A DNA stretch of 64,000 nucleotides from Warburgia ugandensis (taxonomy: Eukaryota; Streptophyta; Magnoliopsida; Canellales; Canellaceae): the NCBI GenBank assembly GCA_035236585.1, contig CP141132.1:60547880-60611879 (forward strand), read 5' to 3'. The position numbers were made by a program, and so were the translations under genes. The notes beneath the pieces are model-generated. The model made no database searches, had not been told where the DNA came from, and saw nothing but the letters and a program-made list of their open reading frames with translations. Shown piece by piece: positions 9,368 to 34,100 of this stretch (the first letter of the stretch is position 1; each line of letters begins with the position of its first letter).

Positions 9368-9488
<121 letters not shown>

Positions 9489-11429: not shown

Positions 11430-11668
11430 GCCCCAACTCCCCCTCTCTAAAAACACGTTTTGTGGCAACTTTTGGACTGGGGTTTCTGGAAAAAACCGAA
11501 AACCCGTCTCTCTGTGTTTTCCGGCAATGGCCAGGCCCAAGTCAGGCCGGCCATTGCCATTTCCCATGTCCCCTTTCTCCTTTCCAGTCTGGCAATAGGG
11601 TTTTCCCCCTTGTTCTAGTTTTTCGGCGAGCAGGCACACCCACCGGGGAAAAAGGGCGTTTCTAGGCT

Positions 11669-11676
11669 ACAGGTAA
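11669..11676 (+). promoter_or_regulatory. Splice-donor-like site in the leader of LTR C
   Basis: ACAG|GTAAGC is a near-consensus 5' splice site about 250 bases after the TATA box. D has CCAG|GTAATA and E has TAAG|GTAATC in corresponding places. Spliced leaders are known from plant gypsy elements, but whether these sites are used is inference. Confidence 0.4.
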
Positions 11677-11840
11677 GCCGTTCTTACCTTTTCCTCTTCG
11701 TTTTGCTTCCCCAAGGCCAGATCCATGCTGGATCTGGTCTTTTCCAGTCGTTTTCTAGCCGGGTTCCTAGCCGAAAAACGTTCCAAGCCGACTTAGGCCA
11801 GCCCTGCACGAACCAGGCGTCCCAGGGACGCCATGCTGCA

Positions 11841-11900
11841 CGTACACCTGGGACTGGGTCCCTGGGACGGGTTCCAGGTGTACGACAGTGTGTACACTGT
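11841..11900 (+). other. GC-rich hairpin pair in the LTR C leader
   Basis: CGTACACCTGG (11841-11851) is perfectly mirrored by CCAGGTGTACG (11874-11884). The adjoining sequence ACAGTGT-GT-ACACTGT (11885-11900) can form a second stem. The surrounding 11700-12120 block is far more GC-rich than the rest of the window and would give a strongly folded leader RNA. Confidence 0.6.
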
Positions 11901-12514
11901 CCCAGGTACGGCCTTCAGGTGCGCGCGCGACATGGGGCATGGGTCCTGGCTCGCCCAGGGTGCACGGAGTGCCCTGGGAGTTGAGACGCGCCATGCTACA
12001 AGGTGCATCTGTGCGATGATGCGTGTCATAGCACGTCACTTGAGTAGGCATGTGCGCGTGCAAAATGCGGTCCCTGGCATGGCCTTTGGGCGCGCACGCA
12101 CGTAAGGCGGTTGCGGTTCAACCAGGATACACAGGTGTCCTAAGAACTGGGGCACGCAGGGGATAAATTACAGAGTCTAACTATTGGAAAGTAGATCCAC
12201 ACCATAGGATCTAGCTTGACGAATGAATTAGGCAAGGACCATAGACCCAATAGGAAGATTTAGCGATCTAATGTCTAAATAGAATGAAATTAATAAGGAC
12301 TCCTTGTATCCATTCATACCCAGGAGTTTATAAATGAGACCCAGGGACGGGTTAAAATGATAAAGGACGCGACTCCAGGAGACTTTGAGGTAGGTGCTCT
12401 ATCGCTAAAAGACTTTTTAAAATAGCCATGATTGTTTTGAAAATGCATGTTTTAAGTATAAGTATATGACTTATTTAGCATGACTTAATTCAGCGTATAT
12501 ATGATAAATGCTTT

Positions 12515-12628
12515 ATGCATAGATATGTTTTGCAAATAATTGCATATACATTATGCATAGATATGTTTTGCAAATAATTACATATACGTGATGCATTGAT
12601 ATATTTTGCAAACAAATGCATATATTGT
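12515..12628 (+). repeat. Three 38-bp tandem repeats in LTR C
   Basis: Units start at 12515, 12553 and 12591 with ATGCATAGATAT or ATGCATTGATAT, followed by TTTTGCAAA and CATATA. The first two are nearly identical and the third is more diverged. Confidence 0.8.
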
Positions 12629-12852
12629 ATGATTTGTGAGCATTGAGTTTTTAAAAGATTGCATGTCCTTGAAGGTTACCAAAAGACGTTGGAGTGCCCA
12701 AAAGACGCTGGGTAGGCAGTTGTGAGGGCCAGGCAGTTGTGAGGGACCCAAAGAGGACAGGTTTTGAAAAAGAGGTTTTTCGCTTGTTCGATCTGATATG
12801 ATTTGGGCTGATAAGCTCGTAGGCGCTATGTCAAGAGGTTTGGGTTGGCCTC

Positions 12853-14185
12853 TGTTAAGTGTTTAATTTTGGTCAAAATTCCCCTAATTTAGCGTTCAAT
12901 TAGATCATCTAACCGTTCAATTTTACAAAACTTAGCTTGATTTTGAATATAAATCCAATTGACCATCCAAACCTTAATTTGTCAAAATCAACGGTCAGAT
13001 GATCATTAGAGTTCATTAGATGACTAATGTACGGTTCAGATGAGTCTAATTTAGTCTATTCTTTTGCAGATCAACCAAAGGACGCACGGATGGCTGTGAT
13101 TAAAAGATAACGGTGCAGATCATCTTAAAGGGCGATGGATGGACCAGATCACCCATGGAGATAGATGAAATAGAAATCATGGACAAAATGGAAAGAACAT
13201 GTAAAGGGCAACTCTTTCCCCCACTTCTTTCTTTCCTTTTCTTCCTTTTTCCTTTTTCCTTTTTCCTTTTCCTTTTCCTCTTTCCCTTCCTTTTTCTCTT
13301 TTCCTTTTCTTTTTCCTTCCTTTTCCTCTTTTCTTTCTTTCCTTTTCCTTCTCCTCTTTCTTTTTCCTTCTTTCCTTTTTCTTTTTCCCTTCCTCATTCT
13401 CACGTACCCAACTCTCTCTTTCTCTCTCTATCGCCTTCCTAGGCTGGAAGAGGAAACCCATCACGCCTCTTTCCCTCTTTCATCTCTCTTCTTCTTAATA
13501 ATATCTCCTTGGCTAGAACATTAGAGGAGACAGACCCGTCAATCCCTCCTCTCTTATTTTCCTCTCCTCTCCACCTTTCTCCCTCTCAACTCCATCTTTG
13601 GCTGGATCACGTTGGAGGCAAACCCGTCAAACCCCACTTCTTCTCTTCCCAACGTTCTTCTCGTCTTCTTCTCTCAATCCCCTCTACCCGCTTTCCCACG
13701 TCTCTTTCTCTATACTCTCTTTCCCAATCGTACACAGCCCGTTCTCTTCTCTTCTCTTCCCTCTTTCTCAACCACATTCTCACCGTACCCAATCTCTCTC
13801 TTTACTCCACTCTCTCTTTCTCTCGTCTTTCTCCTCTTTGGCTGGACGGATCTTCCCCCTGCCCAGCTCCCACCGTGATCTATGTCACGGACTTCTGCCC
13901 CCAATCCGAACCAGACCAGCATCGCCTAGCCCTGCTCATCCTTAGCTTCACCTTCTCTTGTTCACCGGCACTGGACACTCCCAATCTCCAGACTTAAGAC
14001 ACCCCGGCCTCTCTTCTCTTCCCCTCTGTCTCTCCCGGCACCATTCATCTCTAGACAAGAGACGACATCACCGGACGACACCCCTTTCCGGCTTCTGTCT
14101 TCCAGAGTCCAACCCGTCGATCCTCTGCTCCCTTCTCCAGTCCCCACTGGACAAGCACCTCCCATCTTCATCATCACCGCCCAGA

Positions 14186-14251
<66 letters not shown>

Positions 14252-14932
14252 CCCCCGCGTTTCTGCTTCTCTCCGGTCTGGCTTCCTTCTCCGTCGTCTT
14301 TCTCTGCAGCACCAGACGGTCCTGGGGGAGAAAACCCAGAACCCATCTTCCTTCTCTTCCTCTTCTCCCTTCTTCCTTCTTCCTCTTCTCTTCCGGTTTT
14401 CTCCTCTTCTTCCATCGTTGTTTTCCTGGTTTTTTTTCGTTAAAAAACCAGAAACCCCCGAATTCCACATTTGCCCCTGGAAGATCCCAGTAATCCCATT
14501 TGAGTCCCTGTTTTAATTCCACTTCTATCCTTTATCAGAAATTCCATTTGGGTCCCCTGTTTAATTCCATTTGAGTCCCCGAGTTAATTCCAACTGGGTC
14601 CCTATTCTATTTACATCTATGTCCCGGTTCTGTTTTATCATCATTTTGACTATCCAAGGACAGTGCAATCTAGGACAGGCTTATCCAGGACTGATCATTT
14701 TATTGCATTTTCTGTGTTTTTGGAATAAATAATTGTGTACATTGCAACAATTGAATAAATATAGATTTTATTTTATTGTTAGTTGAATTTTGCTATATTC
14801 TTTGTTTTGATTCTTTTATTAATTAGATTTTATTGAAACTCCATCATTTTAAATCAAGTCCTCGTGGGATCGACCCGTACTTGCATAAGCTACCCTACAA
14901 TAGCCCGTGCACTTGCGATAAAACAATCAACA
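12853..14932 (+). repeat. Athila-type 5' LTR, 2080 bp
   Basis: It starts TGTTAAGTGTTTAATTTTGG and ends CAATCAACA. It contains a long pyrimidine-rich tract (about 13211-13440) and a (CT)n tract. Open frames called across it are compositional artefacts of these pyrimidine runs and occur in both strands. Confidence 0.93.
14187..14248. repeat. (CT)n microsatellite in the 5' LTR
   Basis: A pure CT tract of about 62 bp. The same place in the 3' LTR (22521-22545) holds only about 25 bp, so it has changed length since insertion. Confidence 0.95.
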
Positions 14933-14938
14933 AGTTTT

Positions 14939-14956
14939 TGGCGCTGTTGCCGGGGA
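14939..14956 (+). other. Primer binding site, tRNA-Asp type
   Basis: TGGCGCTGTTGCCGGGGA, six bases after the LTR end, matches the TGGCGCCGTTGCCGGGGA site typical of Athila-type elements at all but one base. Confidence 0.88.
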
Positions 14957-16149
14957 CTTGCAAAAGAGTTTTCATAAAATTTAATTAAAAAATCCAAAAA
15001 AATTTAAAAAAAATCAGAAAAATACATAAAATTAGGAATTGCAATTTTTAGCATTTTAGGAAATTTTAGCTGCATTTTTCAATTTTTTTTTTGGGCATAA
15101 TCACCTTGTTTCCTGAATTTGGTACTAATTTCTAATTTTATTTTTCAGGAAATAGGAAAGTGGAGGAATTTGGCAAGTGGATCTTCACCAAATTGGAAAC
15201 TTCCCTGCTTTCCTAGAATAAGACTTTCTTTTTCCTTTTGAGTGAATCTTGTAGTGAAGATCCTTGTAAATTGCAATTTCCATTTTAAAATTTAAAGGGT
15301 TGTATAATACAGGGCAAGTGTGGGATAAGGTGGTTCACACTTGATCTTCATCAGAAACCCCACTGTGAGTTTCCTCACTCATTTATTTCCTAGATTAGGG
15401 TTTGCATTTAGAATAATTTGCATCGTTTGGTAGTGTAACTCATATAGAAGCATTTTTTTTTTATAATTGTTGCATTTTAGGATTTTGCATTAGTTTACTG
15501 CTTTTAATTGCATTCTTAGGGCATGTTTAAAGTTTTAAGGTGATTTATATGCTGATCGAATTGCTATGGTGTGTGAAAATTAATTAGTAAGGGCACCCTA
15601 CCCCCATAAGATCAAGGGTGGATTTCATCACCACCTCTTGGCCCACTCAGGATAATCACCTCAAGCGCGCAAACCTTCCTTTCACGTTAATTTAAAATCA
15701 ATCAGAAGAGACCTATAGGGCCATCACATGCTCGTAGGACCCTCTTAATAGGACGCGATTTACTGTCAGTCCAGTGGCTTTTGATCACTGTGGTTATTGG
15801 GGGTTATCTAATAGAGCCTCGCTCTTCCCCCACCTCCTATTGACGTTTGTTGAGGTTTAAACGCCTCCTTACACGAGGGTTGCATTAACCACCTTGGTTA
15901 GAACCTAATTGGTAAGCAGTAATCAACTCCTAAAGAGAGGAGGAGCGCTAGTCTAGGCTAATAAAAGCATCGTCCCCACAGATAATCAAGAAAATCAAAT
16001 ATATTGCTGCTTATTAGCCTTAGGATTATTTGAGTGTGCCCTTTTGTTTGCGCATCATTCTAGAAGTTAGGTTGCATCATTTAGGTTAGCTTTCTCAAAA
16101 AACAAAAAAAAACAAAAAACAAAAAAAAACAAAAAGAAGCTTCCCTTGT
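14957..16149 (+). other. Untranslated leader of the Athila-type element
   Basis: About 1.2 kb between the primer site and gag, with A-rich runs at 14985-15025 and 16096-16137 and no long open frame. A long leader before gag is usual in Athila relatives. Confidence 0.7.
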
Positions 16150-18126
16150 ATGCACTTTTGGCGACGCGACAAACCCGGAAGGTTAGTCAAGTACGACCAA
16201 AAAGACATACTGCAAGATCAGGCCACATCTATGGCTGATCAACGCTCAAGGGGTAATTCACCCCATGGAAGTCAAGGGGCTCCACTCATCATGAATGAGG
16301 ACCCACCACCCTTGATAGAAGATGAATATCAACCTCCACCAAGGAGGAATAATCATCAACCAAATAGAGATTGGAGAAGAAACAATAGGGAGTGGGACCA
16401 ACAAAGTGAACATGGGGATGATAATATTGAGGGTCATCAAAACTTTCGTGGTAGAACTTTAAAAGACTACCTTCAGCCTACACACACCAGCACACCATCC
16501 TGTGTAATTCTTCCTCAAAATGCTGGTGCGTTAGAATTAAAAACGGGAGTAATCCAATTACTTCCCAAATTCCATGGTCTAGATAGTGAGAGTCCTTATT
16601 TGCACCTTAAAGAATTTGATGAGGTATGTAGTACCCAGAGAACTCAAAATATAGGTCTAGATCTTGTCGGACTTAAACTTTTTCCTTTCTCTTTAAAGGA
16701 AAAAGCAAAAATGTGGTTTAATGCATCGCCATCAGGTTCCATAAGAACCTGGAATGAAATGACTAGGGAATTCTTAAAGAAGTTTTTCCCTACCCATAAA
16801 ACCAATACGCTTCGCCGCAAAATAATGAACTTTACCCAGAAGGATAAAGAATCATTCTATCAATGCTGGGAAAGGTTCAAAGAACTACAACTCACTTGCC
16901 CACATCATGGCTATGAACCATGGCGCATCATCAGCTTCTTTTATGAAGGACTAAATTCTGACATGCTCCAGTTTGTAGAGATGATGTGTAATGGCAACTT
17001 TCTCAACAAACAACCAGATGAGGCAGAGGAGTATTTGGAATGGTTACGCGCAAGTGCACAGACTTGGGCTGACTCAGAAAGAATAGAACATACAGATAGA
17101 CCTAAGCCCAATAGCACCCATGCTAGGGGAGGCATGTATGCTATGTCTGAAAAAGATGATATCAATGCCAAAGTAGCATCCCTAGCGAGAAAAGTAGAAG
17201 CCATAGAAATGGGAAAGAAAAACTCAAATAAAGAAGAACAAGTGTGTAGTATTTGTGAAAGTACGTCACATCTTACTCAGGAATGTCCTACAATCCCTGC
17301 TTTTCAAGATGTACTTCATGATCAAGCTAATGCACTTAACACATATAAAAGACCTTTCTCCCCATATTCAGACACTTATAACCCCAACTGGAGAAACCAT
17401 CCAAACTTTAGTTGGAAAAATGGACTTACTGCTAATGTTCCACAATCAAGACAATATCAACCTCATCAACAAAACCAAGGACTTCTTACCTTACCTTATC
17501 AAACTCATCAACCTCCTTCTGGACCTTACTTGCCCCCACCTAAAAGGCATGTTGAGGATAATCAAAACATTCAAAACCAGGAAAGGAAAATTTCTCAATT
17601 AGAAAGTCAAATAAAACAAACCAACCAGTCCATGAATGAATTAAAAAACATGATGAGTCAAATGATGCAAAGTATGGAAAAAGGAAAGTTCCCAGCTCAA
17701 CCACAAGCAAACCCTAAGGGAGTGCATGCGGTTAGCATTAATGCATCTAATGAAACATCTAGCTCTACCATGGAACAAACTAAGGCTATTACTATTCTTA
17801 GGAGTGGTAAAAGAATTGAGAAAGATGAGCCTCAAAAGACTGAAAAGGTAGAAAAATCCACGAAATTTAAAGAAAACTCTAAACAAAAGGACCCTGTTTC
17901 ACCTGTTGACCCATGTCCTATACCTGCTCCATTTCCTCAAAGGTTGCGTCAAGCCCCAAAGTCTGCATCTAATGATGAGATTTTAGAGATTTTCAAGCAC
18001 GTCAAGATCAACATACCGATCTTAGATGCTATAAAACAAATCCCATCATATGCCAAATTCTTAAAAGACTTATGTACCATAAAGAGAAAATTGAATGTCC
18101 AAAAGAAGGCATTTTTGACTGAATAG
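16150..18126 (+). CDS. gag: Athila-type Gag polyprotein
   Basis: A 658-codon open frame encodes the capsid-nucleocapsid precursor, which would form the cytoplasmic particle that packages element RNA. Residues about 130-310 are the retrotransposon gag domain, with LPKFHGLDSESPYLHLKEF, LKLFPFSLKEKAKMWF, TREFLKKFFP and QCWERFKELQLTCPHHG, a motif series typical of Athila-type Gag. Residues 366-379 form a CCHC zinc knuckle (CX2CX4HX4C). Residues about 478-515 (ISQLESQIK onward) look like a coiled coil. The frame may really start at the second methionine (MADQRSRG, about residue 28), since the first 27 residues look unlike other Gag starts. The Athila assignment also rests on the primer site and 3' domain. 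Confidence 0.88.
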   Translation: MHFWRRDKPGRLVKYDQKDILQDQATSMADQRSRGNSPHGSQGAPLIMNEDPPPLIEDEYQPPPRRNNHQPNRDWRRNNREWDQQSEHGDDNIEGHQNFRGRTLKDYLQPTHTSTPSCVILPQNAGALELKTGVIQLLPKFHGLDSESPYLHLKEFDEVCSTQRTQNIGLDLVGLKLFPFSLKEKAKMWFNASPSGSIRTWNEMTREFLKKFFPTHKTNTLRRKIMNFTQKDKESFYQCWERFKELQLTCPHHGYEPWRIISFFYEGLNSDMLQFVEMMCNGNFLNKQPDEAEEYLEWLRASAQTWADSERIEHTDRPKPNSTHARGGMYAMSEKDDINAKVASLARKVEAIEMGKKNSNKEEQVCSICESTSHLTQECPTIPAFQDVLHDQANALNTYKRPFSPYSDTYNPNWRNHPNFSWKNGLTANVPQSRQYQPHQQNQGLLTLPYQTHQPPSGPYLPPPKRHVEDNQNIQNQERKISQLESQIKQTNQSMNELKNMMSQMMQSMEKGKFPAQPQANPKGVHAVSINASNETSSSTMEQTKAITILRSGKRIEKDEPQKTEKVEKSTKFKENSKQKDPVSPVDPCPIPAPFPQRLRQAPKSASNDEILEIFKHVKINIPILDAIKQIPSYAKFLKDLCTIKRKLNVQKKAFLTE

Positions 18127-19440
18127 GTTAGTTCTATTCTTCAACACCATACACCACTAAAGTACAAAGATCCTGGTTGCCCCACTCTTACTTGCATTAT
18201 TGGCAGCTACAAGATTAACCAAGCTCTTCTTGATTTAGGATCTAGTGTAAATCTATTACCATACTCAGTATACGAATAGTTAGGTCTGGGTGAACTGAAA
18301 CCTACATCTACTACGCTCCAGCTAGCTGATCGTTCTATAAAAATACCGAGAGGGGTAATAGAGGATGTGTTAGTCCAGGTAGAACAATTTTGCTTCCCTG
18401 TCGATTTTCTAGTTCTAGATACACAACCGGTGGTGAATGAGAAGAATGAAATACCAGTTATCCTGGGATGACCATTTTTGGCTACGTCCAATGCCTTAAT
18501 CAACTGTAGAAATGGTGTCATGAAACTATCTTTTGGCAATATGACATTAGAGCTAAACATCTTTAACATTTGTAACCAACCTAGTGAAACTACTGATGAT
18601 TTGCACAGTATTAACATGATCAATTCAGTTGTGCAAGATCAGTTTCAGTCGTCTTCCTTGTCAGACCCACTGGAGGCCTGTTTGGCCCATTTTAATGAGT
18701 TTAATGAGGATGCATTAATAGAGGAAGTTAATGCCCTCCTTGATTCTGTTCCTATCATGGATACAGGTAAATGGAAACCTCATTTTGAGGAGCTTCCATT
18801 AAGTGAGATCACTTACCTCCCATCATCAGTAGAACCACTTGCAGAGCCTGAAATTCCAAATAAGTCTTTTAATGTAGAATATGTACCTGATTGGGACCTA
18901 CAGCCTTTGTTTGAAAAATCATTAAATAAGAAATTAGGCCCACATGAAGTATTGCATGTGCCAATAGAACAGGACAAGAAAGAGTCCATTGATCTACTGT
19001 CCATACATCAACTAACTCTAAGGTACACACTAGAAGAAAATCAGGATGTAAGCAAAACCATGCTCCCTCCTCTATTAATACAAGAACAATCTTTTAAGGA
19101 AGGACAGAGTCAGCTTATGTCTCAATGTCAAGAAAATGTAAGGGAAAAAGAGGACCCTCCACATGGTTTAAAAGAATTCACGGTAGTTCACATTGTTATA
19201 GAGATTCCACCACCTAAATTTTCAAGGTGGAGGAGTTATATTGATTACCGTGAAATTTTGAAGATAGGAGATCATCAAAGTGGTCTCATTCAATGGACAT
19301 TCATGGTAGTCTATTGTGTTATAATTATACCATCACCAAAAATTTCAGGGTGGATGAACTATATAGACTATCGTGAGATTTTGAAGTGGTGTGAGAAATC
19401 TTGCCATTTCATTATTGGAATCAGGAACACTCAAAGATAA
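18127..19440 (+). pseudogene. Protease-like region after gag, Athila-type, fossil
   Basis: An aspartic-protease-like stretch follows gag, with LDLGSSVNLLP near 18229-18261 in the place of the usual D-S/T-G active-site block (Athila relatives often have LDLGASVN here). LQLADRS lies nearby. Farther on is a 320-codon open frame (18478-19440) with a repeated WxxYIDYREILK phrase near its end. It does not resemble RT, RNase H or integrase. The region is broken about two to three times in all. Whether the last part had its own function is unknown. Confidence 0.6.
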
Positions 19441-21137
19441 ATGAGGATATATGTCTGGCTGAAGACGTTAAACTTAGCGCTCACTGGGAGGCAACCCAGA
19501 GTTTTTCATTTTTGTTGTTTTCTACATCACCCATATTCATTTTAGGTCCTACTTTTTACAACATTGAGGACAATGTTTCTCTCAGGTTGGGGGGTGTAGA
19601 ATTCTAGCAAATTCTAGTTTTTTTTTAGTTTTATAGGTGCTTTCCTTGACTTTAAAAAAAAAAAAATGAAATGAAAAAAATGAAAAAATTTAGGTTAATT
19701 TCCTACACTATGATGAGAATTGGATTTTCTGAAGTATAATCTAGATAACTTTAGCTTATTAATAGAATTGAATATGATTAATTCATCTTTTTACTCATTT
19801 TCTAAAGTATTCTATGAAAGCAAAGTCTCAGATCACATCTGTACACGCAGTTGCATATAGATAGTCTAGATTGATAAGTGACTATAATTTGGAGATTCTG
19901 AAGAAATTCAGTGGAGACCTATAACCTAAGTGAGTTTTAGAGATATTCATCCTTTGTGAGAGGTTATAAATGTTCCTAATTTTCTTCAGCATGCTTAAAG
20001 AAAATTGATCCCATACTCTTAATTTGGCTAATTACCTGAATAATTAGAATATTACCTTTAAAATTTTAGAAGTTCATTGAATTTGATGGATTATAGGAAA
20101 CCTAGAAAATGATTTAGGCCATCCTTGTTATAACCTAGAGACATAAAGCCTACCCATAAAGTATTGTTACCACTAGTCAGCCAACTTGAGCCTTTAATAT
20201 AAGCCTTTTCTTTTGCCACCCAAATTACCCTTTACTCATATTAACCCAGTATAAATTATCCATTACCCATTTTCTTTGAAAAATAAGTTAGAGAAGAATG
20301 AAGAAATACCTTTTAGTTGTAATGAAAAGTGGATATCAAGAAAAGAAATATTCTTCAAAGTGATTCAAAAGTACTGAAATAGTTTGAAAAAAAAAAAATG
20401 TTTGAAGAATGCAAAAAAAAAAAGAGAAAAGAAAAAGAAGAAATATTCACTTCATCAAAGAAAGAAAGAATTATCAACTTTAGAAGACCTCTACTTATTT
20501 TCTGAAGAAACTTTGAATATCCTTATACCCTTTCTTTGATACCTTGTCCTAAGCCTACGTTTCGTCCCAATTAAAGACCTATTGATTCTAGGAGAAATAT
20601 AGTCTTGATGAGGAAATGAATGGACAGGATATAAAAGAGTGGTATTTCTAAATATTCAAAGGTAATGACATCTATTCTAAAGGGATCAAAACAATGAAAT
20701 TCCTTAGTAACTCCCAATTTTCATGAGTGCATGTGAGAAAATGTTACTTTTATTGACTCAACTCACATAATTAAAAGAGAGATATGATTTGACCCCTTTA
20801 TCTGAGAGATTTTGTTTCTGAGTGTATGTCATTAGTGAGGCTTGAGGTCAAAACATATTTCGGATGGAGTTCAAAAGTTAGAAGTTTACTTAGAGATTAA
20901 GATGATTCTATATGTAAACTGTACATGCACACACTCACTCTGAGATTTGAGCTTAATTGGAATTATTTTGGCATATGGGTAGGGTTTTGAATTTTTTAGT
21001 CATTTTTATTAGTATGATAAAGTTGATGTGATTTATTGAAGATAATTCTCTAAGAAAAAAGAGGAGTTGACTTAAAAATAAAATTTGAAATCTTGAAATT
21101 TGGTTTTTCACATGTTTTGCTAGGGACTAGCAAAATG
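19441..21137 (+). other. Non-coding 3' domain of the Athila-type element
   Basis: It begins with GACGTTAAACTTAGCGCTC and GGGAGGCAACCCAGAG (about 19464-19502) and then ATTGAGGACAATGT and GGTTGGGGGGTGT (about 19563-19597). This phrase order is a hallmark of the segment downstream of pol in Athila-type elements. The rest is AT-rich with no open frame of note and an A-rich stretch near 20385-20445. Confidence 0.7.
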
Positions 21138-21151
21138 CTGGTTGGGGGGTG
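21138..21151 (+). other. Polypurine tract of the Athila-type element
   Basis: GCTGGTTGGGGGGTG lies directly before the 3' LTR start TGTTAAGTG, in the position where plus-strand priming occurs. Confidence 0.75.
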
Positions 21152-23226
21152 TGTTAAGTGTTTAATTTTGGTCAAAATTCCCCTAATTTAGCGTTCAATT
21201 AGATCATCTAACCGTTCAATTTTACAAAACTTAGCTTGATTTTGAATATAAATCCAATTGACCATCCAAACCTTAATTTGTCAAAATCAACGGTCAGATG
21301 ATCATTAGAGTTCATTAGATGACTAATGTACGGTTCAGATGAGTCTAATTTAGTCTAGTCTTTTGCAGATCAACCAAAGGACGCACGGATGGCTGTGATT
21401 AAAAGATAACGGTGCAGATCATCTTAAAGGGCGATGGATGGACCAGATCACCCATGGAGATAGATGAAATAGAAATCATGGACAAAATGGAAAGAACATG
21501 TAAAGGGCAACTCTTTCCCCCACTTCTTTCTTTCCTTTTCTTCCTCTTTCCTTTTCTTCCTTTTTCCTTTTCCTTTTCCTTTTCCTTTTCCTCTTTCCCT
21601 TCCTTTTTTTCTTTTCCTTTTCTTTCTTTTCTTTTTCCTTCCTTTTCCTCTTTTCTTTCTTTTCTTTTCCTTTTCCTTCTCCTCTTTCTTTTTCCTTCTT
21701 TCCTTTTTCTTTTTCCCTTCCTCATTCTCAAGTACCCAACTCTCTCTTTCTCTCTCTATCGCCTTCCTAGGCTGGAAGAGGAAACCCATCACGCCTCTTT
21801 CCCTCTTTCATCTCTCTTCTTCTTAATAATATCTCCTTGGCTAGAACATTAGAGGAGACAGACCCGTCAATCCCTCCTCTCTTATTTTCCTCTCCTCTCC
21901 ACCTTTCTCCCTCTCAACTCCATCTTTGGCTGGATCACGTTGGAGGCAAACCCGTCAAACCCCACTTCTTCTCTTCCCAACGTTCTTCTCGTCTTCTTCT
22001 CTCAATCCCCTCTACCCGCTTTCCCACGTCTCTTTCTCTATACTCTCTTTCCCAATCGTACACAGCCCGTTCTCTTCTCTTCTCTTCCCTCTTTCTCAAC
22101 CACATTCTCACCGTACCCAATCTCTCTCTTTACTCCACTCTCTCTTTCTCTCGTCTTTCTCCTCTTTGGCTGGACGGATCTTCCCCCTGCCCAGCTCCCA
22201 CCGTGATCTATGTCACGGACTTCTGCCCCCAATCCGAACTAGACCAGCATCGCCTAGCCCTGCTCACCCTTAGCTTCACCTTCTCTTGTTCACCGGCACT
22301 GGACACTCCCAATCTCCAGACTCAAGACACCCCGGCCTCTCTTCTCTTCCCCTCTGTCTCTCCTGGCACCATTCATCTGCCTAGACAGCACCAGACGACA
22401 TCACCGGACGACACCCCTTTCCGGCTTCTGTCTTCCAGAGTCCAACCCGTCGATCCTCTGCTCCCTTCTCCAGTCCCCACTGGACAAGCACCTCCCATCT
22501 TCATCATCACCGCCCAGACATCTCTCTCTCTCTCTCTCTCTCTCTGCACCCCCGCGTTTCTGCTTCTCTCCGGTCTGGCTTCCTTCTCCGGCGTCTTTCT
22601 CTGCAGCACCAGACGGTCCTGGGGGAGAAAACCCAGAACCCATCTTCCTTCTCTTCCTCTTCTCCCTTCTTCCTTCTTCCTCTTCTCTTCCGGTTTTCTC
22701 CTCTTCTTCCATCGTTGTTTTCCTGGTTTTTTTTCGTTATAAAACCAGAAACCCCCGAATTCCACATTTGCCCCTGGAAGATCCCAGTAATCCCATTTGA
22801 GTCCCTGTTTTAATTCCACTTCTATCCTTTATCAGAAATTCCATTTGGGTCCCCTGTTTAATTCCATTTGAGTCCCCGAGTTAATTCCAACTGGGTCCCT
22901 ATTCTATTTACATCTATGTCCCGGTTCTGTTTTATCATCATTTTGACTATCCAGGGACAGTGCAATCTAGGACAGGCTTATCCAGGACTGATCATTTTAT
23001 TGTATTTTTTGTGTTTTTGGAATAAATAATTGTGTACATTGCAACAATTGAATAAATATAGATTTTATTTTATTGTTAGTTGAATTTTGCTATATTCTTT
23101 GTTTTGATTCTTTTATTAATTAGATTTTATTGAAACTCCATTTTAAATCAAGTCCTCGTGGGATCGACCCGTACTTGCATAAGCTACCCTACAATAGCCC
23201 GTGCACTTGCGGTAAAACAATCAACA
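21152..23226 (+). repeat. Athila-type 3' LTR, 2075 bp
   Basis: It is almost identical to 12853-14932. The differences are a handful of scattered substitutions and length changes in the pyrimidine tract and CT repeat. GCCTC follows at 23227. Confidence 0.93.
22521..22545. repeat. (CT)n microsatellite in the 3' LTR
   Basis: A CT tract of about 25 bp, the counterpart of the 62-bp tract at 14187-14248. Confidence 0.93.
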
Positions 23227-23469
23227 GCCTCCAGCCTCTACCACTATTAGGTGGATGGGTACCATGCCCAAAAAGGGCAACGTCCCTGCTTCGACTGCAT
23301 GTGGTACAGGGGGCTACCACTGGTGTCACGGCACTGGGTCGAAGTGTCATATGTCCCGTGGAGGCATATGACCCTATGTCCTCAGGTACCCGGGGACCAC
23401 ATGGCGACGAGGTCGTGGGCATAGTTGGACCCTATGGTTTGAGGATTTACTTGCATTGCATATGGCATG

Positions 23470-23481
23470 ACATGAGGTTGG
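23470..23481 (+). other. Short palindrome TGGTCGACCA in LTR C
   Basis: A 10-bp perfect palindrome sits where D and E have a longer palindrome. In D, TGGTC and GACCA flank ACGAGTACTCGT. Here the outer arms are joined directly. Confidence 0.6.
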
Positions 23482-24954
23482 TCGACCATACCAAATCTCC
23501 ATGAGTTGGATTCAGTGGAGCATCTTATACATATCATTATGTTTATGATATATGATACTTTCGACTTGGATTATGCTATTCTTTAAGTCGTCAGTATTTC
23601 AGTTTGACAGTGGTTTTTAATATCGATATTGAACATGATTGTTCGAACATGCACATGTTTTTAAGAGCACATGATTTTAAACGTAGCATGCATTGCAAAA
23701 CTAGTAGTGATAGACTCCTATTGAGTATAGTATATACTCACCCTATCCTTAACATTTTTCAGGATAGTTCCACTTACAAATAGAAGACGCCTTAGGAGAT
23801 ATTAGTGCTATGAGCAAGTGAATAAATAAAGGAGAAAACTATACATGTGAGTAAACTCTCTACCCTTTGGACATGCATTTATATTTAATTACAGTTGGGC
23901 TGTGTGCTGTGACTAGATAGACCTGGGAAAAAACATTTATGATTTCTAAAGTTTTTCAAAAACTACTTTGGCTGTTGTGAAAGCAAATGACACTCGCTGT
24001 TTTCAAAATGAGTTTAAAACCAAAGATTTTTCGCTGCAATGCATGGTTTTTATAAAATGGTTTTCAAATAGGGATGCATCCCGCCTTAGGAATTAGATAT
24101 TGCATTTAAAAATGCATGAGAAAACCCGGGTCGTCACATGAAATGATGAAAATAATGTTAATTAAAAGAATTGCATGTTATAATTGGTGCTTATGTGTGA
24201 CGACCCAGGTTTTCACATGCATTTTTAAATGTAATAACTAATTCCTAGGGTGGGATCGATCCCTATTTGAAAACACTTTTAGAAAATATATGCAATGCAA
24301 CGGAAAAATCTTTTTCTTTTAAACTCATTTTGAAAACCCCGAGTGTCATTTTCTCTCGAGACTAGTAAAGTAGTTGTTGAAATTTTTTGAAAATCATAAA
24401 TGTCTTCCTAGGTCTATCCAGTCACAGCTCACAGCCCAACTGTAAATAAGTACAGCTACATGTCCAAAAGGTAAAGGGTTTACTTACATTCATACTTGTC
24501 TTCTCTTCATTCACTTGATCGTAGCACTAACATGTTCTCATGCTTCTTCTAATTCTGTGTGGAGCTAATTTGGAAAAATAATAGATTAGGGTGAGTATTT
24601 CTCATACCCAGTAGGTGATTTGATACTATTATTTTGAAAACACTATGGCAACATGCATGATTCCAAGAGCTTTTCATGTAAAACATCAGTGATTCCTTTT
24701 GTGTAAGCATGCATAATTATGCATAAAACATAAGCTTATTGATGCAATTTCAATCATAGAATCCTTATGCAAATCACGTCATATAAATATGACTAAAATA
24801 GAAATCAATCGATCCATATACGAAGATCTCGGCAAATGCATCAAACTAGCGAGTCAAATATAATAATGATGAAACTCTTAAAATAGTGATCATTTAAGCA
24901 GATGCTAGTATCATGCACATGAGTCTCTCAGCGTACACGTCACGCCAACTGGTC

Positions 24955-24966
24955 ACGAGTACTCGT
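24955..24966. other. 12-bp palindrome ACGAGTACTCGT, D 3' LTR
   Basis: A perfect palindrome, flanked by GGTC on the left and a GACC-bearing segment on the right (TATACGACC), which makes a longer imperfect hairpin. The same 12 bases occur in the sister LTR (29108-29119) and in solo LTR E (47103-47114). Confidence 0.8.
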
Positions 24967-26658
24967 ATACGACCATCTCAATGCTATATACATATCGATC
25001 ACACCGAAATCATTGGGCCACTACGCTCATACTCAGCATACATCTAGAATCTATCATAGCCTCCACAGCAACTATGGATGTCCCCGAAAGGGTGCCGTGA
25101 ATACCTCCAGTGGTCGTCCCTGTTTACCACAGCAATCAGGGAAGGGACAATGCCTTTTTGGCAGTGATACCATCCACCCTTTCCGTGGTAGAGGCCGGGA
25201 GGCCAATCCCGTACCTCCTTTCAGCATAATGCCCACCAGGCTTATCAACCCATAAAATATAAAAATCATGTCCTCTTTGGGTCCCTCACACTGCCTCACC
25301 AGCGTCTTTTGGTAATCCTCAAGGTTATGCTTTTATCCGGATCGCAATAATCGTAAATCATGCAATTTATGCACTTATTCATTGTAAATCATGCAATTTA
25401 TGCAATCATTTTCAATGTCCACTTTGGGTCCCTCACACTGCCTGGCCCTCACAACTGCCTAACCAGCGTCTTTTGGGCACTCCAATGTCTTTTGGCAATG
25501 CTCAAGGATAGGCAATGCAATTGTTTTAATTCATGCAATTTATGCCATCCATTCTAAAGTATGTGAGCAATGCATTCATATAATCATCTCAATGTAAATG
25601 ATCACATTCAAGACCATACATTATGAAAATAACTCGATAATATAAGATTAATAAATCAAGTACATTTGGAAATGCATTAAAAATGTAGCAGTATCAGACT
25701 ACTTACCTCGATGTCTCTTGAATTGCGTTCATCACTACTCGTCCTTGAATCATCTTGTGAAATTCTGGATGTTAATGGAGAACAAGGATTCAAATATTAT
25801 TTTCTATCAATTTACAAATCACTACTTAAAACTTTAAATTATAGTTAGATCTGCCTTTTTGGTCAAATTGCATGTCTTGATGCTTCGAATGGGTTTACAC
25901 TTGACTTGGATAGTCAGATCTAAAATTCAAAGGTTAATATAAGGAATTTAGACTCTAATAGACCCAAGGAATCCATCTATGAAGTTCAATCATTTTTATC
26001 TTATAGATCTATGAGATCGCTAGAGTTTTTGGTCTCTAATCATATAAAATAGTCCTCGGATCCTAAGTTTTATAGTCTAATTAGGTATGCGTCATTAATA
26101 CGGACACAACGGTTCTTTCGAATGGTCAATCAGAGTCCTACAACCCCTGTAATTGCATCTTTAGTGTCCTAAAGTCATGAACGAACTAAATTCGTCTACG
26201 CGGGCCTCGTGTCATGGTTCCCAGGAAGCGTTCATGTACTAGTCGAACAGAAACAGTAGCTGTATTCTCACGTGCGCGCATGCGCCAGCGACGTCCTTGG
26301 GCACGCATTCTAGACAGTGTCCCGCAGACGCATCTTCGGCGGGGGTGCGACGTCATGGTTCCCGAGGTGCTTGCGCACCCTGGTCAAAGCAGGACTCATG
26401 CACCCACATCGCACGTGCCCGAAGGCCTGGTTGAGTCCCGATCTAACCAGGGACAGCACCTGTACATGGTTGCACGCTCAAGGTCTGCCCCATGGGGCGC
26501 GTTCTAGGCATGCATCAAGCACCTTGCCCTAGGACAGTTTCCTTCGCTGGGTTGGTTATGGAATTGGCGATTTTCAGCCGGGAAACTCCAGATCCGTCAT
26601 GGATTTGGCCTGGGGAAGGGGAAAACCAGAGAAAGGAAAGAGGAGGGAAAAGGGTATT

Positions 26659-26665
26659 ACCTGGA
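26659..26665 (-). promoter_or_regulatory. Splice-donor-like site, D 3' LTR
   Basis: The minus strand reads CCAG|GTAATA about 280 bases after the TATA box. The sister LTR has the same site at about 30839-30845. Use in splicing is inferred from sequence only. Confidence 0.38.
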
Positions 26666-26935
26666 AGCCTAAGAGGGTGCCATAGTCGGTGGGTCCGAGT
26701 TCACCGTGCTACAAAAAACCCTCCCGTCGGAAGTGTAGAAACGGCTGAAGTTGTAGGGAAGAAACAAAGGAGATGCAAGTGAGAGAGAATAAGGGAAGAG
26801 GCACGCTCCATTCCGGTGGTGCCTGTGCCATGGGAGAAAGGAAAAAATTGGGAGGGGAGATTTTCCGACGAAGGAGAAACCCTTGCCGGAGATGAGGGAG
26901 AAGAAGGGATGCCCAAAGGGAGATGGGTAGAGGGC

Positions 26936-26942
26936 TTTTATA
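26936..26942 (-). promoter_or_regulatory. TATA box, D 3' LTR
   Basis: TATAAAA on the minus strand within GGGCTATAAAAGCCC, about 390 bases from the LTR start. Its setting closely matches LTR C. Confidence 0.65.
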
Positions 26943-27331
26943 GCCCACGAAGGCGGTGCCGCCATCCTTTCTAGCACCGTCCTACAGAGGCTGTTCTGGA
27001 AGGTTCGCGAATGGCGGTGGCTGGAGGTAGGGGATGACTTGGGGGGTGTTGTTAGTAAAACGGCCCCCTGTGTTTTCGGATCGTTCTGTTTTAATTATAT
27101 TTTACAAAAATGCCCCTTCATCTTCAAAAGGCCATAACTTAGTCATATGAACTTCGTTTTTGGTGTTCTTCGAGGCGTTGGATTCCATTTTGAATGTAGA
27201 ATCTAATGGTACTAATTTTTCTCACAAATTCCTTTGTTTTATATTTTTATTAATATTAAACATCTAAAACATATATTAATTTTTAGAATTAACCACTTTT
27301 ACATAATATCTTCAAAATTTGAGGCATTACA

Positions 27332-28349
27332 TCATTACCCCCTTAAAAGAATTTCACCCTCAAAATTCTATAAATTATTACCTTCAAGTTATCAGTCTCT
27401 TGGACTACTTCTAAATGAGTGTGGTCCTTAGAACTCGAACTACGAAAAATTTCTTTGCTTTATTCCATAATTCTTTCTTCTAACATTCCCTTATTCTTTT
27501 ATCCAATACTTTAATTGGGTTAATGACCAGGGAATTGCATCCTTCAAATTCCGTTCATGTTATCATGTGACCAATCTTAGGCACACTCTCAACTTACCAT
27601 CCTCATACTTTCTTCCACAAGATCTTAAATATACCTAAAATTTATCATATCTTTATGCCTACCTTAAGTACGTAAGAGCCGCTTCCGCTGCGTACTCTAA
27701 TACTTAGTCCCTTTCATGCTAATTTATCAATACTAGTGCATATAATTTCTATCAAGTTTATAAAATTACAACCCCTTATCCAGGCTTTGTCATCATCCAT
27801 TAAGGCTTAATTGTCAGGAGATATCATCCTAAGTAATGATTTTCTCAATTCCTCGAATTTCATCTTCCTATTATACTCAATTTCTTTGTCATTCCTATCA
27901 TGCTCACATTGTATCCCTCTTGCTAATATACTCATATCGTGATCTTCTCTATGATGGTAAAATAGCCCTAAGGTTCCAATTATGCCATCTAAGTTCTTCG
28001 ATGTTCCCACTTGATTGATCTAGTATAGGTCAAAGTTATCTACTGGTAAGTTCACTAACATCCTTCTTCATCATTATAATCTGATTCATATACGAGTTTG
28101 CCTGTTTGCACCACTGCACAACAATCCAACAAAAAGCACCTTGGAGTTTAGCCATCCAAGACCTATGTATTTGCTAAATCTATCTTCTTTATGGTGCGGT
28201 GCATTTCTTTGTGGTCTAATATTATTTTTTATTCTAGTCATCTCTACTACTTCTATTTATACTACTTCTTCTTAATTTTCTCGATTGTCTATGACCCTTG
28301 GACAAGCTAGACTGACTGTAAAAGGATAAAACTAAGCTCTGATACCAAC
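27332..28349 (-). other. Interior of element D, non-coding
   Basis: 1018 bases between the two LTRs. A polypurine tract lies at the left end (27336-27350, TTTTAAGGGGGTAATGA-like on the minus strand) and the primer site at the right end. The only sizeable open frame (27807-28010, 67 codons, minus strand) has no recognisable domain. A GCGTACTCTAATA phrase near 27687-27700 is shared with the interior of element A near 34749-34765, linking the two families' interiors. Confidence 0.75.
28336..28347 (-). other. Primer binding site of element D, tRNA-iMet type
   Basis: The minus strand reads TGGTATCAGAGC, an exact match to the plant initiator-methionine primer site, two bases inside the 5' LTR end. 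Confidence 0.88.
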
Positions 28350-29107
28350 TGTGACAACCTGGGTTTTCACATGCATTTTTAAATGTAATAACTAATTCCT
28401 AGGGCTGGATCAATCCCTATTTGAAAACACTTTTAGAAAATCAATGCAATGCAACGAAAAAATATTTTTGTTTTAAACTCATTTTGAAAATCCAAAGTGT
28501 CATTTACTCTTGAGACTAGTAAAGTAGTTGCTGAAAAATTTTGAAAATCATATGTCTTCCCAGGTCTATCCAGTCACAGCTCACAACCCAACTGTAAATA
28601 AGTACAGCTACATGTCCAAAAGGTAAAGGGCTTTCTTACATTCATACTTGTCTTCTCTTCACTCACTTGATCGTAGCACTAACATGTTCTGATGCTTCTT
28701 CTAATTCTGTGTGGAGCTAATTTGGAAAAATAATATATTAGGGTGAGTATTTCTCATACCCAGTAGGTGATCTGATGCTACTATTTTGAAAACACGATAG
28801 CCAACATGCATGATTCCAAGAGCTTTTCATGTAAAACATCAGTGATTCCTTTTGTGTAAGCATGCATAATTATGCATAAAACATAAGCTTATTGATACAA
28901 TTTCATTCATGGAATCCTTATGCAAATCACGTCATATAAATATGACCAAAATAGAAATCAATAGATCCATATACGAAGATCTCGACAAATGCATCAAACC
29001 AGCGAGTCAAATATAATAATGATGAAACTCTTAAAATAGTGATCATTTAAGCAAATGCTAGTATCATGCATATGAGTCTCTCGGCGTACACGTTATGCCA
29101 ACTGGTC

Positions 29108-29119
29108 ACGAGTACTCGT
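29108..29119. other. 12-bp palindrome ACGAGTACTCGT, D 5' LTR
   Basis: Identical to the copy at 24955-24966 although the surrounding LTR sequence has several differences. Confidence 0.8.
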
Positions 29120-31116
29120 ATACGACCATCTCAATGTTATATGCATATCAATCACACTGAAATCATAGGGCCACTACGCTCATACTCAACATACAGCTGG
29201 AATCCACCATAGCCTCCACGGCGATTATGGATGTCCCCAAAAGGGTGCCGTAAACACCTCCAGTGGTCGTCCCTATTTACCAAAGCAGTCAGGGAAGGGA
29301 CAATGCCTTTTTGGCAGTGATACCATCCACCCTTTTCGTGGTAGAGGCCGGGAGGCCAACCCCGTACCTCCTTTCAGCATAATGCCCACCAGGCTTATCA
29401 ACCCATAAAATATAAAAATCATATCCTCTTTGGGTCCCTCACACTATCTCACCAGCGTCTTTTGGTAATCCTCAAGGTTATGCTTTTATCCGGATCGCAA
29501 TAATCATAAATCATGCAATTTATGCACTTATTCATTGTAAATCATGCAATTTATGCAATCATTTTCAATGTCCTCTTTGGGTCCCTCACACTGCCTGGCC
29601 CTCACAACTGCCTAACCAGCATCTTTTGGGCACTCCAATGTCTTTTGGCAACCCTCGAGGATAGGCAATGCAATTGTTTTAATTCATGCAATTTATGCCA
29701 TCCATTCTAAAGTATGCGAGCAATGCATTCATAAAATCATCTCAATGCAAATGATCGCATTCAAGACCATATATTATGAAAATAACTCGATAATATAAGA
29801 TTAATAAATCAAGTACATTTGGAAATGCATTAAAAACGTAGCAGTATCAGACTACTTACCTCGATGTCTCTTAAATCGCGTTCATCACTACTCTTCCCTA
29901 AATCATCTTGTGAAATCCTGGATGTTAATGGATAACAAGGATTCAAATATTATTTTCTATATATTTACAAATCACTACTTAAATCTTTAGATTACGGCTA
30001 GATCTGCCTTTTTAGTCAGATCTCCTATCTTGATGCTTCGAATGGGCTTACACTTGACTTGGATAGTCAGATCTAAAATTCAAAATTCAAAGGTTAATAT
30101 AGGGAATTTAGACTCTAATAGACCCAATGAATCCATCTATGAAGTTTGATCATTTTTTATCTTGTAGATCTATGAGATCTCTAGAGTTTTTGGGCTCTAA
30201 TCACATAAAATAGTCCTCTGATCCTAAGTTTTATAGTCTAATTAGGTCTACGTCATTAATACAGACACAATGGTTCTTTCAAATGGTTAATCAGAGTCCT
30301 ACAGCCCCAGAGTCCTACAGCCCTTGTAATTGCATCTTTAGTGTGCCAAAGTCACGAACGAACTATATTTGTCTATGCGGACCCTGCGCGTCATGGTTCC
30401 CAGGACGTGTATGCATACCGGTCGAACAAAGACCGTAGTTGTGCTCGCACGCGTGCGCATGCCCGAGCGACGCGCTTGGGTGCACATTCTAGATAGTGTC
30501 GCGCGGACGCATCTTCGGCGCAGGTGCACGCGTCATGGTTCCCGGGGCGCTCATGCGCCCTGGTCGAACCAAGACTAATGCACCCACATCGCACGTGCTC
30601 GAAGGCCTGGTTGAGTCCTGGTCGAACTAGGGACAATGCCTATATGTGGTCGCACGCTCAAGGTCCGCCCCACGGGGCGCGTTCCGGGCATGCATCACGC
30701 ACCTTGCCCTAGGACAGTTTCCTTCGCTGGGCTGGTTATGGAACCGGCAATTTTCAGTCAGGAAACACCAGAGCCGGCATGGATTTGGCCTGGGGAAGGG
30801 GAAAACCAGAGAAAGGGAAAGAGGAGGGAAAAGGGTATTACCTGGAAGCCTAAGAGGGTGCCATAGCCGGTGGGTGCGAGTTCGTCGTGCTGCAGAAAAC
30901 CCTCCCGTCGGCAGTGCAAAAACGGCTAAAGCTGTAGGGAAGAAACAAAGGAGAAGCAAGCGAGAGAGAAGAAGGGAAGAGGCACGCCCCATTTCGGTGG
31001 TGCCTGTGTCGTGGGAGAAAGGAAAAAACTGAGAGGGGAGGTTTTCCGACGAAGGAGAAACCCTTGCTGGAGATGAGGGAGAAGAAGGGATGCCCAGAGG
31101 GAGATGGGTAGAGGAC

Positions 31117-31123
31117 TTTTATA
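31117..31123 (-). promoter_or_regulatory. TATA box, D 5' LTR
   Basis: TATAAAA on the minus strand. This is the copy that would drive transcription through the element, starting leftwards into the GC-rich leader. Confidence 0.65.
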
Positions 31124-34100
31124 GCCCACGAAGGCGGTGCTGCCCAAAGGCGGTGCCACCATGCTTTCCACCACCGTCCTACAGAGGCAGTTCTGAAAGG
31201 GTCAAGAATGGCAATGGCTGGACGTAGGGGATGACCTGGGGGTGCCGTTAGTAAAATGACCCCCTGTGTTTTCGAATCGTTCTATTTTACTTATATTTTA
31301 CAAAAATCCCCCTTCATCTTCAAAAGGTCATAACTTAGTCATATGAACTCCGTTTTTGGCGTTCTTTGAGGCGTTGGATTCCATTTTGAATGTAGAATCT
31401 AATGGTACTAATTTTTCTCACAAATTCCTTTGTTTTATATTTTTATTAATATTAAACATCTAAAACATATATTAATTTTTAGAATTAACCACTTTTACAT
31501 AATATCTTCAAAATTTGAGGCATTACATTATGACTTGTACATCATATATGTGAATTGTGAAATTATGTTTATAGTACATGGGTACCATGTCAATAATGGT
31601 GGTGTGTGAGTCTAGGTTTATAGGATACATCCTTGGTGGATTATCACCAAATAAGTGAGGATGTTATTCTTGTTATGCAATATATGAACAGGCAAATTAC
31701 CTGCTATTATGAATGTTTTACATCCGTGCATGGAAGCTTGAGAGTTTGTTTTAGACAGGCATAGGCCTAGGGATGCTATGCTAGGAGAGTTGTGAGGGTT
31801 TGGCCACCTACTCTCCGAAATTGTGATGATATGGATACCAAGGGAGGCTAAAAGTAGGGTACAACCAATCATGGGAAGGCCACCATAGTGATTTTGTCAT
31901 TTCCACCTCAGTATTAGTGAATTATTATGCAGTTATCCAGGCGCGTTGTACGAATTTAGATTGCGGCATAATAGTCCTTATATTTGATGCACTATGGTGC
32001 TTATATGATGGTATTATGAGATGCCTTATATGATGTGGTATGATGATATGCCTTATATTATTTTCTCAGCAATGGCTGAAGGATTGCGGACCTCGTATGG
32101 TGAGGGGCATGAGAATTATATTGATATACTAGTAGAGGCTGGATGATTATGAACCCCACATGATGAGGGGTATGATTCTGAAACCCAGTATAGTCTGGGA
32201 ATGTAAATTAGATGATATTGATTATATTCATAATTTTGTATGTCTTTTAACAATTTCCATATATGTGTTTGTATGCTATACGTATATGATTGAGGGCATA
32301 GTTTTATATAAGTTTCATATGGGTATATGCATGGGTAGAACTGTTATGGAGAGTGGTTTATGGAATTGGATTATCTTATTTAAATGATAAAGGATAATTG
32401 TAAATACTTTATTTATTAATGGATTATTGATATTTATGAAATATGCTCTTATTTGATTATCAATTGGTTATTAAATTATAAAACATGTTAATACTTGGTT
32501 TAACAATGAAGTAATGAATTATGAAACGTATTGTAAATTCAAGTCAATATAAATGTTATGAGAATGAATATTCTGAATAATGCAAATTAATTAATTCATA
32601 TTTAAATTTAGCATGCTTCTTAAACTCCCCTACCAAGCATAGCTTATTGAGATATTGTAAATGTTTTATGTTTACAATATCTCAAATACAGATAAATAGG
32701 AGAAGATGTACACAAGAAGAGGAATTCAGCAACCATACTTCTATGTTCAAGTATACATTTTATTAAAGCTTTTGTATTGTGTAGTTAGACATTTGAATTG
32801 TGATATTAGACATTTAATATAATATTATAGGGGTTATACAACCATTGGATGGGTCCTATTTTAAGAAATAAATTTCTATCTTCTAGAAAACTATATGTGT
32901 GTGTGTAGTGTGAGCATGAAAGTGACATCTGGGTTTTGAAAAAATGAATTTCAAAGAAAAATATTCCACTATTTTTGTATTTTAAAATTTAGAGGTGCGC
33001 CATCTTTTGAAAATAAAAGCAAAAAATTTCATGAAAAACCCTGTGTGTCACACAAAACTCCTCCTGGATTGCTCAAAATCCAGGTTTGAAGGTCAAGGGT
33101 TAAACTGGGTCAACTCAATCCTGTCCAACCGAGTCGGAGGTGACCAACTCAGGTGATTGTGAAATAGTAGGGAAAACAGGGGTGGATGGTGACCAGTGGC
33201 CAGACTAGCACTGTCCGATCCTAGCCACCAAAAAACAGAGGCACGCCTGAAAGCTAGGTCGTGTTAGTGACAAAGAAACACATGGGACAATGGTAAGGAT
33301 GGTGGTGGTTAGGTGGCTTCCAATTCCTAGCCACCACCCGATCTGGTCAAGGAGAACAAAGCACACTAGTAGACCTGAAAGCTTGGCCGTGGGGGTGCCT
33401 GGGGAAGACGAAGAAAAAGAGGGAATCAAGGGAATCCTAGGCTGATGGTAGTTGGATCGTGCACCGTCCGATCCAGGTCACCGGAAAATCACATAGGGAA
33501 TAAAACAATGGGGGATAGAGCATAGATCTTTGGCATGGGTCTTAGTACATTGGCCTTCCAGGTCTGGCTATGCCATGCCATGGAAAACTAGAGGGGAGCT
33601 CGGGTGGCTAGTGACTATGGGATTGTCACTTGCCTAAGCCCGACAGAAGAAGAGGGAAAAACCTCAAGGGCACTTGTGACCTCAACGTGAAAAACCCAGC
33701 ATGGATTTCTGGTATTACTGGAGAACAGATCATCGGTGGATTTCAATGTAGAAAAAAATGGGTTTTTCACGTGTTGCTTGTGACAAAGGGGAAAGAAATC
33801 AGAGAAATGGTTGTGGCCGGTGATGGAGGCCTTCCTCGTGGAAGACACATGAAAATAAACTTGAAAAAAAACCCGATCTGGGTTTTGAAAAACACATATC
33901 CACTATGGATCTGCTCAGAGAAGAGGAGCTAGAGGGGAAACTACCGGGGCTTTGCCGGGGATGAAAAACCCGATGAGGGCTAGGCACGTCAGGCCATGCT
34001 TGGATGCCAGTCCAGTGATCGCCAAAAATAAGGGAGAGCAAGGGTTTGGGGGTTGTCAATGTCGAGTTTTAGAAAGAACTAGACTTGATATTACGTCGGG

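What the first reader, a model, noticed from the sequence alone, without database searches (positions are those of the whole stretch)
24196..31527. Element D: complete element with 3.1-3.2-kb LTRs and only a 1.0-kb non-coding interior
LTRs make up about 86 percent of the element. It keeps everything needed in cis (ends, primer site, polypurine tract, TATA box) but has no recognisable intact gene. LARDs described in grasses have long LTRs with interiors of several kilobases, so this ratio is extreme. Its sisters C, E and F show the family was mobile. I know of no named family matching this description.
Basis: partly seen in the sequence, partly recalled or inferred. Interest (0 to 1): 0.75.

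Follow-up and report, generated by a model that had tools for sequence, protein, structure and literature searches.

The report
Gene-less retrotransposon with long repeats
This is a real but old plant retrotransposon copy made almost entirely of its two long end repeats; it belongs to a gene-less family that probably borrows proteins from other elements, and its very short middle is partly its own private deletion, so it is a new example of a known kind.

Summary
Element D is real and complete: LTRs 24196-27331 and 28350-31527 (92.3% identical), interior 1018 bp, 86.1% LTR, TSD TTATG, minus strand. It is not just a deleted coding element. Sixteen interiors read from 15 of 20 fetched copies have no frame over 120 codons. 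D and 15 of those 16 were aligned to a longer relative: all 16 share one large gap, so a shortened gene-less form probably spread as a lineage. The relatives that could be measured have interiors of about 3.0-3.8 kb, too small for gag-pol; the four read in part or whole are gene-less, though one (L041) was not read to its end. But D's own length is private: its deletion junction is found once in the genome; 14 of 16 sisters have 1.2-1.7 kb. Several features point to the Del/Tekay lineage, none decisively. The partner supplying proteins was not found. A printed family is more extreme: Medicago Mtr77, LTR 2191 of 4668 bp, interior about 200 bp. Verdict: an old LARD family with a shortened sublineage; D is an individual extreme. 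New member of a known kind.

The parts
24191..24195 (.). target-site duplication TTATG, left copy
   Evidence: TSD5 True
24196..27331 (-). LTR-A (3136 bp), the 3' LTR in element orientation
27332..28349 (-). non-coding interior, 1018 bp
27338..27344 (-). polypurine tract AAGGGGG, then a 6-nt TAATGA spacer before the 3' LTR
   Evidence: sequence; PPT+LTR-start pattern at 3267 places genome-wide, reversed control 0
27858..27892 (-). 35-mer across the junction of D's private interior deletion
   Evidence: found once in the genome at up to 3 mismatches; gap 570-2127
28336..28347 (-). primer-binding site TGGTATCAGAGC (initiator-Met type by recall)
   Evidence: PBS+leader pattern at 989 places, reversed control 0
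28350..31527 (-). LTR-B (3178 bp), the 5' LTR in element orientation
30328..30727 (-). GC- and CpG-rich stretch of the LTR (positions 801-1200, CpG o/e 1.0-1.47)
   Evidence: no island-calling program was run
31116..31123 (-). TATAAAAG at LTR position 405
31528..31532 (.). target-site duplication TTATG, right copy
11028..24138 (+). element C: related solo LTR (about 2.74 kb without the insert), flanks TGAAA, split by an Athila-like element at about 12853-23226

Best explanation
D is one old copy of a gene-less (non-autonomous) LTR retrotransposon family, a LARD, most likely of the Ty3/gypsy Del/Tekay (chromovirus) type. Inferred cycle: the LTR promoter makes an RNA with PBS, leader and PPT; proteins of a coding chromovirus package it, copy it from a Met-type tRNA primer and integrate the DNA through the LTR ends, giving the 5-bp TSD. 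A class with interiors of about 3.4 kb most simply gave rise, by internal deletions, to class I (about 1.2-1.7 kb), which spread. D is a class I copy that lost about 0.6 kb more on its own, before or after insertion. Shown: anatomy, TSDs, gene-less interiors in the copies read, shared gaps, private junction. Inferred: mobilisation in trans, the lineage, the direction of the length change.
For: Anatomy and TSD of D. Of six complete copies including D, five have perfect TSDs; LTRs 2.36-3.19 kb, interiors 1.02-1.62 kb. No frame over 120 codons in 16 sister interiors, none over 131 in L041-L044 as fetched. Relative to L042, gap 2744-3194 in 16 of 16 and gap 2229-2650 with the same ends in 15 of 16 (D and 15 sisters); L042 and L044 share most of the extra sequence. 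PBS-leader at 989 places, PPT-LTR at 3267, U5-PBS at 7314, reversed controls 0. Paired sites: 9 of 9 on C1 have 2958-3654 bp; of 12, 9 have 832-3838 bp, 2 are longer through inserts, 1 spans two elements. Del-like traits: CpG-rich 5' part of the LTR, U5 bases -1, -2, -3, -6. Tails of 8 of 20 interiors match, over 21-36 bp at 81-92%, a stretch behind a chromovirus-type integrase domain.
Against: No coding element with D's LTR was found, so lineage and partner rest on short motifs. In one search D's own tail gave no match at E 0.01, and D's LTR matched none of L045-L047. D's U5 GGG sits one base further out than in published type A. L041 has over 4.2 kb of interior without reaching an LTR and matches L042 only over its first 0.8 kb. 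Only L042 among the longer relatives was read whole. The direction of the length change is not rooted, and a joint alignment can pull gap ends together. No copy dated here is young.
Confidence: 0.8

Rival explanations
1. D is merely a deleted individual of a coding family: an ordinary full-length element that lost gag-pol after insertion.
For: D's last 0.6-kb deletion is private, and sisters vary in interior length.
Against: The 16 sister interiors read are gene-less, and D shares gap ends with 15 of them (L028 left out). Of 20 element-sized pairs of sites, 18 have interiors of 3.84 kb or less and the two longer ones hold inserts.
Confidence: 0.06
2. D's shortness is a product of recombination between copies, not an ancestral short form.
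For: The genome holds LTR-INT-LTR-INT-LTR tandems (L029, L033) and a U5+interior array (L038), so recombination has acted on the family.
Against: D is one clean element with a perfect TSD and collinear LTRs; the shared short form is seen in copies on five contigs (C2, C3, C6, C7, C8). Recombination may explain the private deletion.
Confidence: 0.04
3. The family is a TR-GAG type: it keeps, or recently kept, a gag gene and lost pol only.
For: The interiors have short open pieces that could be decayed gag.
Against: No TE domain in the 10 of 23 plus-strand pieces of 40 aa or more given to Pfam; no frame over 131 codons.
Confidence: 0.05

Closest known systems
Medicago truncatula Mtr77, classed LARD (PMC2533021, passages)
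   Same: Non-autonomous, 2191-bp LTRs, very short degenerated interior, called abundant
   Different: More extreme (4668 bp in all, interior about 200 bp); no sequence comparison made here
LARDs such as barley Sukkula (passages of PMC7215508 and PMC4668562; the original paper is not held)
   Same: Gene-less LTR elements with a non-coding core that are assumed to depend on proteins of others
   Different: D and class I have interiors of 0.8-1.7 kb instead of 'usually >4 kb'; the longer class (3.0-3.8 kb) comes closer
Wheat RLG_WHAM and RLG_Sabrina with likely partner RLG_Wilma (PMC9744471, passages and section 13)
   Same: High-copy non-autonomous families judged to be mobilised through shared PBS and LTR 5' ends
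   Different: There a partner was proposed by five criteria; here none was identified. Their primer is tRNA-Asp, here Met-type by recall
Del/Tekay chromoviruses (PMC4029996, abstract and sections 12, 14, 15, 19)
   Same: LTR 1.1-4.8 kb, CpG-rich 5' part of the LTR, conserved LTR ends; a Medicago Tekay family has a Met PBS and 2.1-kb LTRs
   Different: Del elements there were recognised by coding domains; D has none

Membership tests
LARD (large retrotransposon derivative) | LTR element with two LTRs, PBS, PPT and TSD | tested here: met
   sisters
LARD (large retrotransposon derivative) | No protein-coding domain in the interior, across the group | tested here: met
   For the copies read: D, 16 sister interiors, L041-L044 as fetched, 10 pieces against Pfam
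LARD (large retrotransposon derivative) | Element of 2 kb or more (Inpactor rule) or 4 kb or more (Medicago rule) | tested here: met
   7332 bp
LARD (large retrotransposon derivative) | Large conserved non-coding interior, usually over 4 kb | tested here: not met
   1018 bp in D, 1.2-1.7 kb in 14 of 16 sisters, 2958-3838 bp in the longer class. The rule says 'usually'; Mtr77 is called LARD with about 200 bp. I therefore file D as a LARD by lack of genes and size only
Del/Tekay chromovirus lineage | RT or integrase with chromodomain placing it in the lineage | not testable with these tools
   D and the relatives read have no coding region
[quoted passage not shown]
   Ends and CpG-rich stretch agree in the main (against 27-29); GGG shifted by one base; the paper's logos are not held; no CpG program run
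TRIM | Small element with short LTRs | tested here: not met
   LTRs 3.1-3.2 kb
TR-GAG | A gag domain in the interior | tested here: not met
   In the copies read: no gag hit among 10 pieces, no frame over 120 codons in 16 interiors

The most novel reading that the evidence does not exclude
The family is a natural deletion series (interiors of about 3.4 kb, then 1.6 kb, then 0.8-1.0 kb) that stayed mobile while its interior shrank, so that nearly all signals for packaging, reverse transcription and integration lie in the 3-kb LTRs plus a few hundred bases of leader and tail; the long LTRs would be the selected, working part of such parasites.
Probability: 0.2. Interest if true: 0.45.

Novelty: new member of a known kind. 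Interest (0 to 1): 0.25.

Why it matters
It adds a gene-less, long-LTR family with thousands of matching U5-PBS junctions in one plant genome (7314; how many are gene-less is not known) and a shortened-interior form that also spread. That gives a natural deletion series for asking which interior sequences such an element needs. For D itself the lesson is caution: a striking ratio in one copy can be a private deletion.

Tried and rejected
Rejected: D as a deletion of a coding element; TRIM and TR-GAG; D's 1018-bp interior as a family trait. Caveat: a sister sharing the deletion but 10% diverged could exceed 3 mismatches in 35; but no other place matched 1-1011 without a break.

Partner search, no result. 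The SH3_Tf2-1 search scored 150 of 11348 candidates. L045-L047 gave no match to D's LTR or interior, only short tail matches of some sisters to L045 and L046. One search found 18 places with the same U5-PBS and a different leader, which could not be read on.

Solo-LTR ratio: not settled. The LTR-start pattern (1074 places, 48 in the control) fits only D-like LTRs, while the PPT pattern (3267) is wider, so they cannot be divided.

Left out of counts: L028 from the alignment (its leader is missing and it holds foreign sequence); L026 from the six complete copies (right end not found); L027 from the dates (rearranged LTR, K2P 0.44); 15 of 100 PPT places (contigs C10-C14), where no PBS place was listed. 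Searches for long-LTR, short-interior wording in papers returned nothing.
Full report
Observation. D is where it was reported. LTR-A is 24196-27331 (3136 bp), the interior 27332-28349 (1018 bp), LTR-B 28350-31527 (3178 bp), flanked by TTATG on both sides. The LTRs are 92.3% identical over 3133 aligned sites (179 transitions, 63 transversions, K2P 0.082). Read on the minus strand the element begins TGTAATGCC, ends in GTCACA, has PBS TGGTATCAGAGC two bases after the 5' LTR and AAGGGGG six bases before the 3' LTR. TATAAAAG lies at LTR position 405 and a GC- and CpG-rich stretch at about 801-1200. No frame of 100 aa lies in the interior.

The family. The interior was searched in the window's own genome (1.12 Gb, 14 contigs). 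Of 4973 first-look candidates 40 were scored, giving 77 matches. Only D matched the whole query in one piece; many others matched 1-536 and 545-1011 with several hundred bases between. I fetched 20 stretches of 10 kb. By my reading, 17 of 20 have D-like LTR sequence on both sides of interior sequence on one strand; L032, L037 and L040 do not. Sixteen interiors cut from 15 of these loci measure 805-1801 bp, 14 of them 1186-1666 bp; the longest stop-to-stop frame is 120 codons. The 1801-bp one (L028) lacks the leader and holds foreign sequence; the 805-bp one (L039) includes 14 bases of LTR, being 791 bp from its PBS. Of six complete copies including D, five have perfect 5-bp TSDs and L036 has four of five bases; LTR K2P is 0.057-0.106 in five, while L027 aligned poorly (0.44) and gives no date. 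I give no years, as the host and its rate are unknown.

Is the short interior inherited? D and 15 sister interiors were aligned with L042, a relative with a 3454-bp interior. Gap 2744-3194 is in 16 of 16 and gap 2229-2650 in 15 of 16 (in L030 inside a larger gap). The set 1141-1296, 1340-1403, 1427-1668, 1679-1731, 1745-1852 is in 13 of 16 (one end off by one in L033); D, L034 and L039 have larger gaps over it. L044 holds most of the same extra sequence as L042 (73.6% over 1741 columns), so it is not private to L042. The shared gaps suggest one shortened ancestor that spread over at least five contigs. The direction is not rooted, and a joint alignment can sharpen gap ends; loss is the simpler reading.

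Is D's own length inherited? No. D has a further gap, columns 570-2127. The 35-mer across the junction is found once at up to 3 mismatches, in D itself. The 86% ratio is therefore D's: the other five measured copies have 77-83%. Nor is D the shortest (L039; 832 bp at C5:4104045). Whether D lost this piece before or after it inserted cannot be told, so D as it stands is not shown to be mobile.

Genome-wide counts. Patterns gave 989 places for PBS plus leader (3 mismatches), 3267 for PPT plus LTR start (3 mismatches), 7314 for U5 end plus PBS (2 mismatches), each with 0 in the reversed control, and 1074 against 48 in the control for D's LTR start. Each answer lists 100 places. Pairing 100 PBS-leader places with 85 of 100 PPT places gave 12 pairs: 832, 1412, 1479, 1607, 3546, 3646, 3649, 3727 and 3838 bp; one of 4602 bp whose leader is split; one of 6351 bp that is L043, with D-like LTR pieces nested in it; one of 9582 bp that spans two elements. 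Pairing 100 U5-PBS places (all C1) with 32 PPT places on C1 gave 9 pairs of 2958-3654 bp. A Del-type gag-pol needs over 4 kb (recalled; frames around the SH3 domain here reach 1439 aa), so none of the 18 uninterrupted pairs can hold it. These lists are sorted by mismatch and contig and are a biased sample.

The longer relatives. L042 was read whole (3454 bp interior); L043 and L044 lack about their first 0.25 and 0.56 kb; L041 was read for 4254 bp of interior without reaching an LTR and matches L042 only over about its first 0.8 kb. The longest frames are 105, 112, 131 and 117 codons in L041, L042, L043 and L044. L041 is thus not explained by the 3.4-kb class and may hold inserts.

Lineage and mechanism. 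LTR length, CpG-rich 5' part, end motifs and PBS agree with Del/Tekay as described in PMC4029996 (abstract and sections 12, 14, 15, 19) and PMC2533021 (passages). The U5 end has A, C, A and G at -1, -2, -3 and -6; the GGG is one base further out than in type A. The tails of eight of 20 interiors (L021, L024, L026, L029a, L029b, L033, L039, L044) match a stretch behind the integrase domain in L045 or L046, 21-36 bp at 81-92%; D's own tail gave no match at E 0.01. Calling that stretch the end of a chromodomain gene is recall. The likely mechanism is mobilisation by a coding chromovirus, as argued for wheat WHAM and Sabrina (PMC9744471, passages and section 13). That step is inferred. Only 18 places keep the exact U5-PBS with a leader free of T at four set positions, 8 of them of the type CCARACCCC; they could not be read on.

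Known or new. Printed rules call gene-less elements of this size LARDs, though the usual interior is over 4 kb. The Medicago family Mtr77, classed LARD, has 2191-bp LTRs in 4668 bp and an interior of about 200 bp, more extreme than D. The present family is a new member of a known kind.

Noticed in passing
window 12853-23226: Athila-like element (name recalled) with 95.8% identical LTRs and a 658-aa gag frame at 16150-18126 (Pfam Retrotrans_gag, E 4.5e-22), nested inside solo LTR C.
   Followed up: partly
L038 1914-8279: Tandem array of U5 end plus interior 1-779, period about 1116 bp, with five U5-PBS junctions in a row.
   Followed up: partly
L029 and L033: LTR-interior-LTR-interior-LTR tandems, as from unequal recombination.
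   Followed up: partly
G000 C1 32.38-43.89 Mb: 28 of the 30 listed one-mismatch PPT-LTR places lie here, 26 of these 28 with the variant TAATAATGTAATGCC; the list stops at 43.9 Mb. Possibly a clustered subfamily of the longer class.
   Followed up: partly
window 44808-47951 (+) and 48503-50436 (-): Diverged D-like LTR remnants in opposite orientation, next to each other.
   Followed up: no
window 4541-4638, 9370-9486, 50978-51135: Perfect CT/GA dinucleotide runs of 49, 58.5 and 79 units; GA/CT runs also show in some sister interiors.
   Followed up: no
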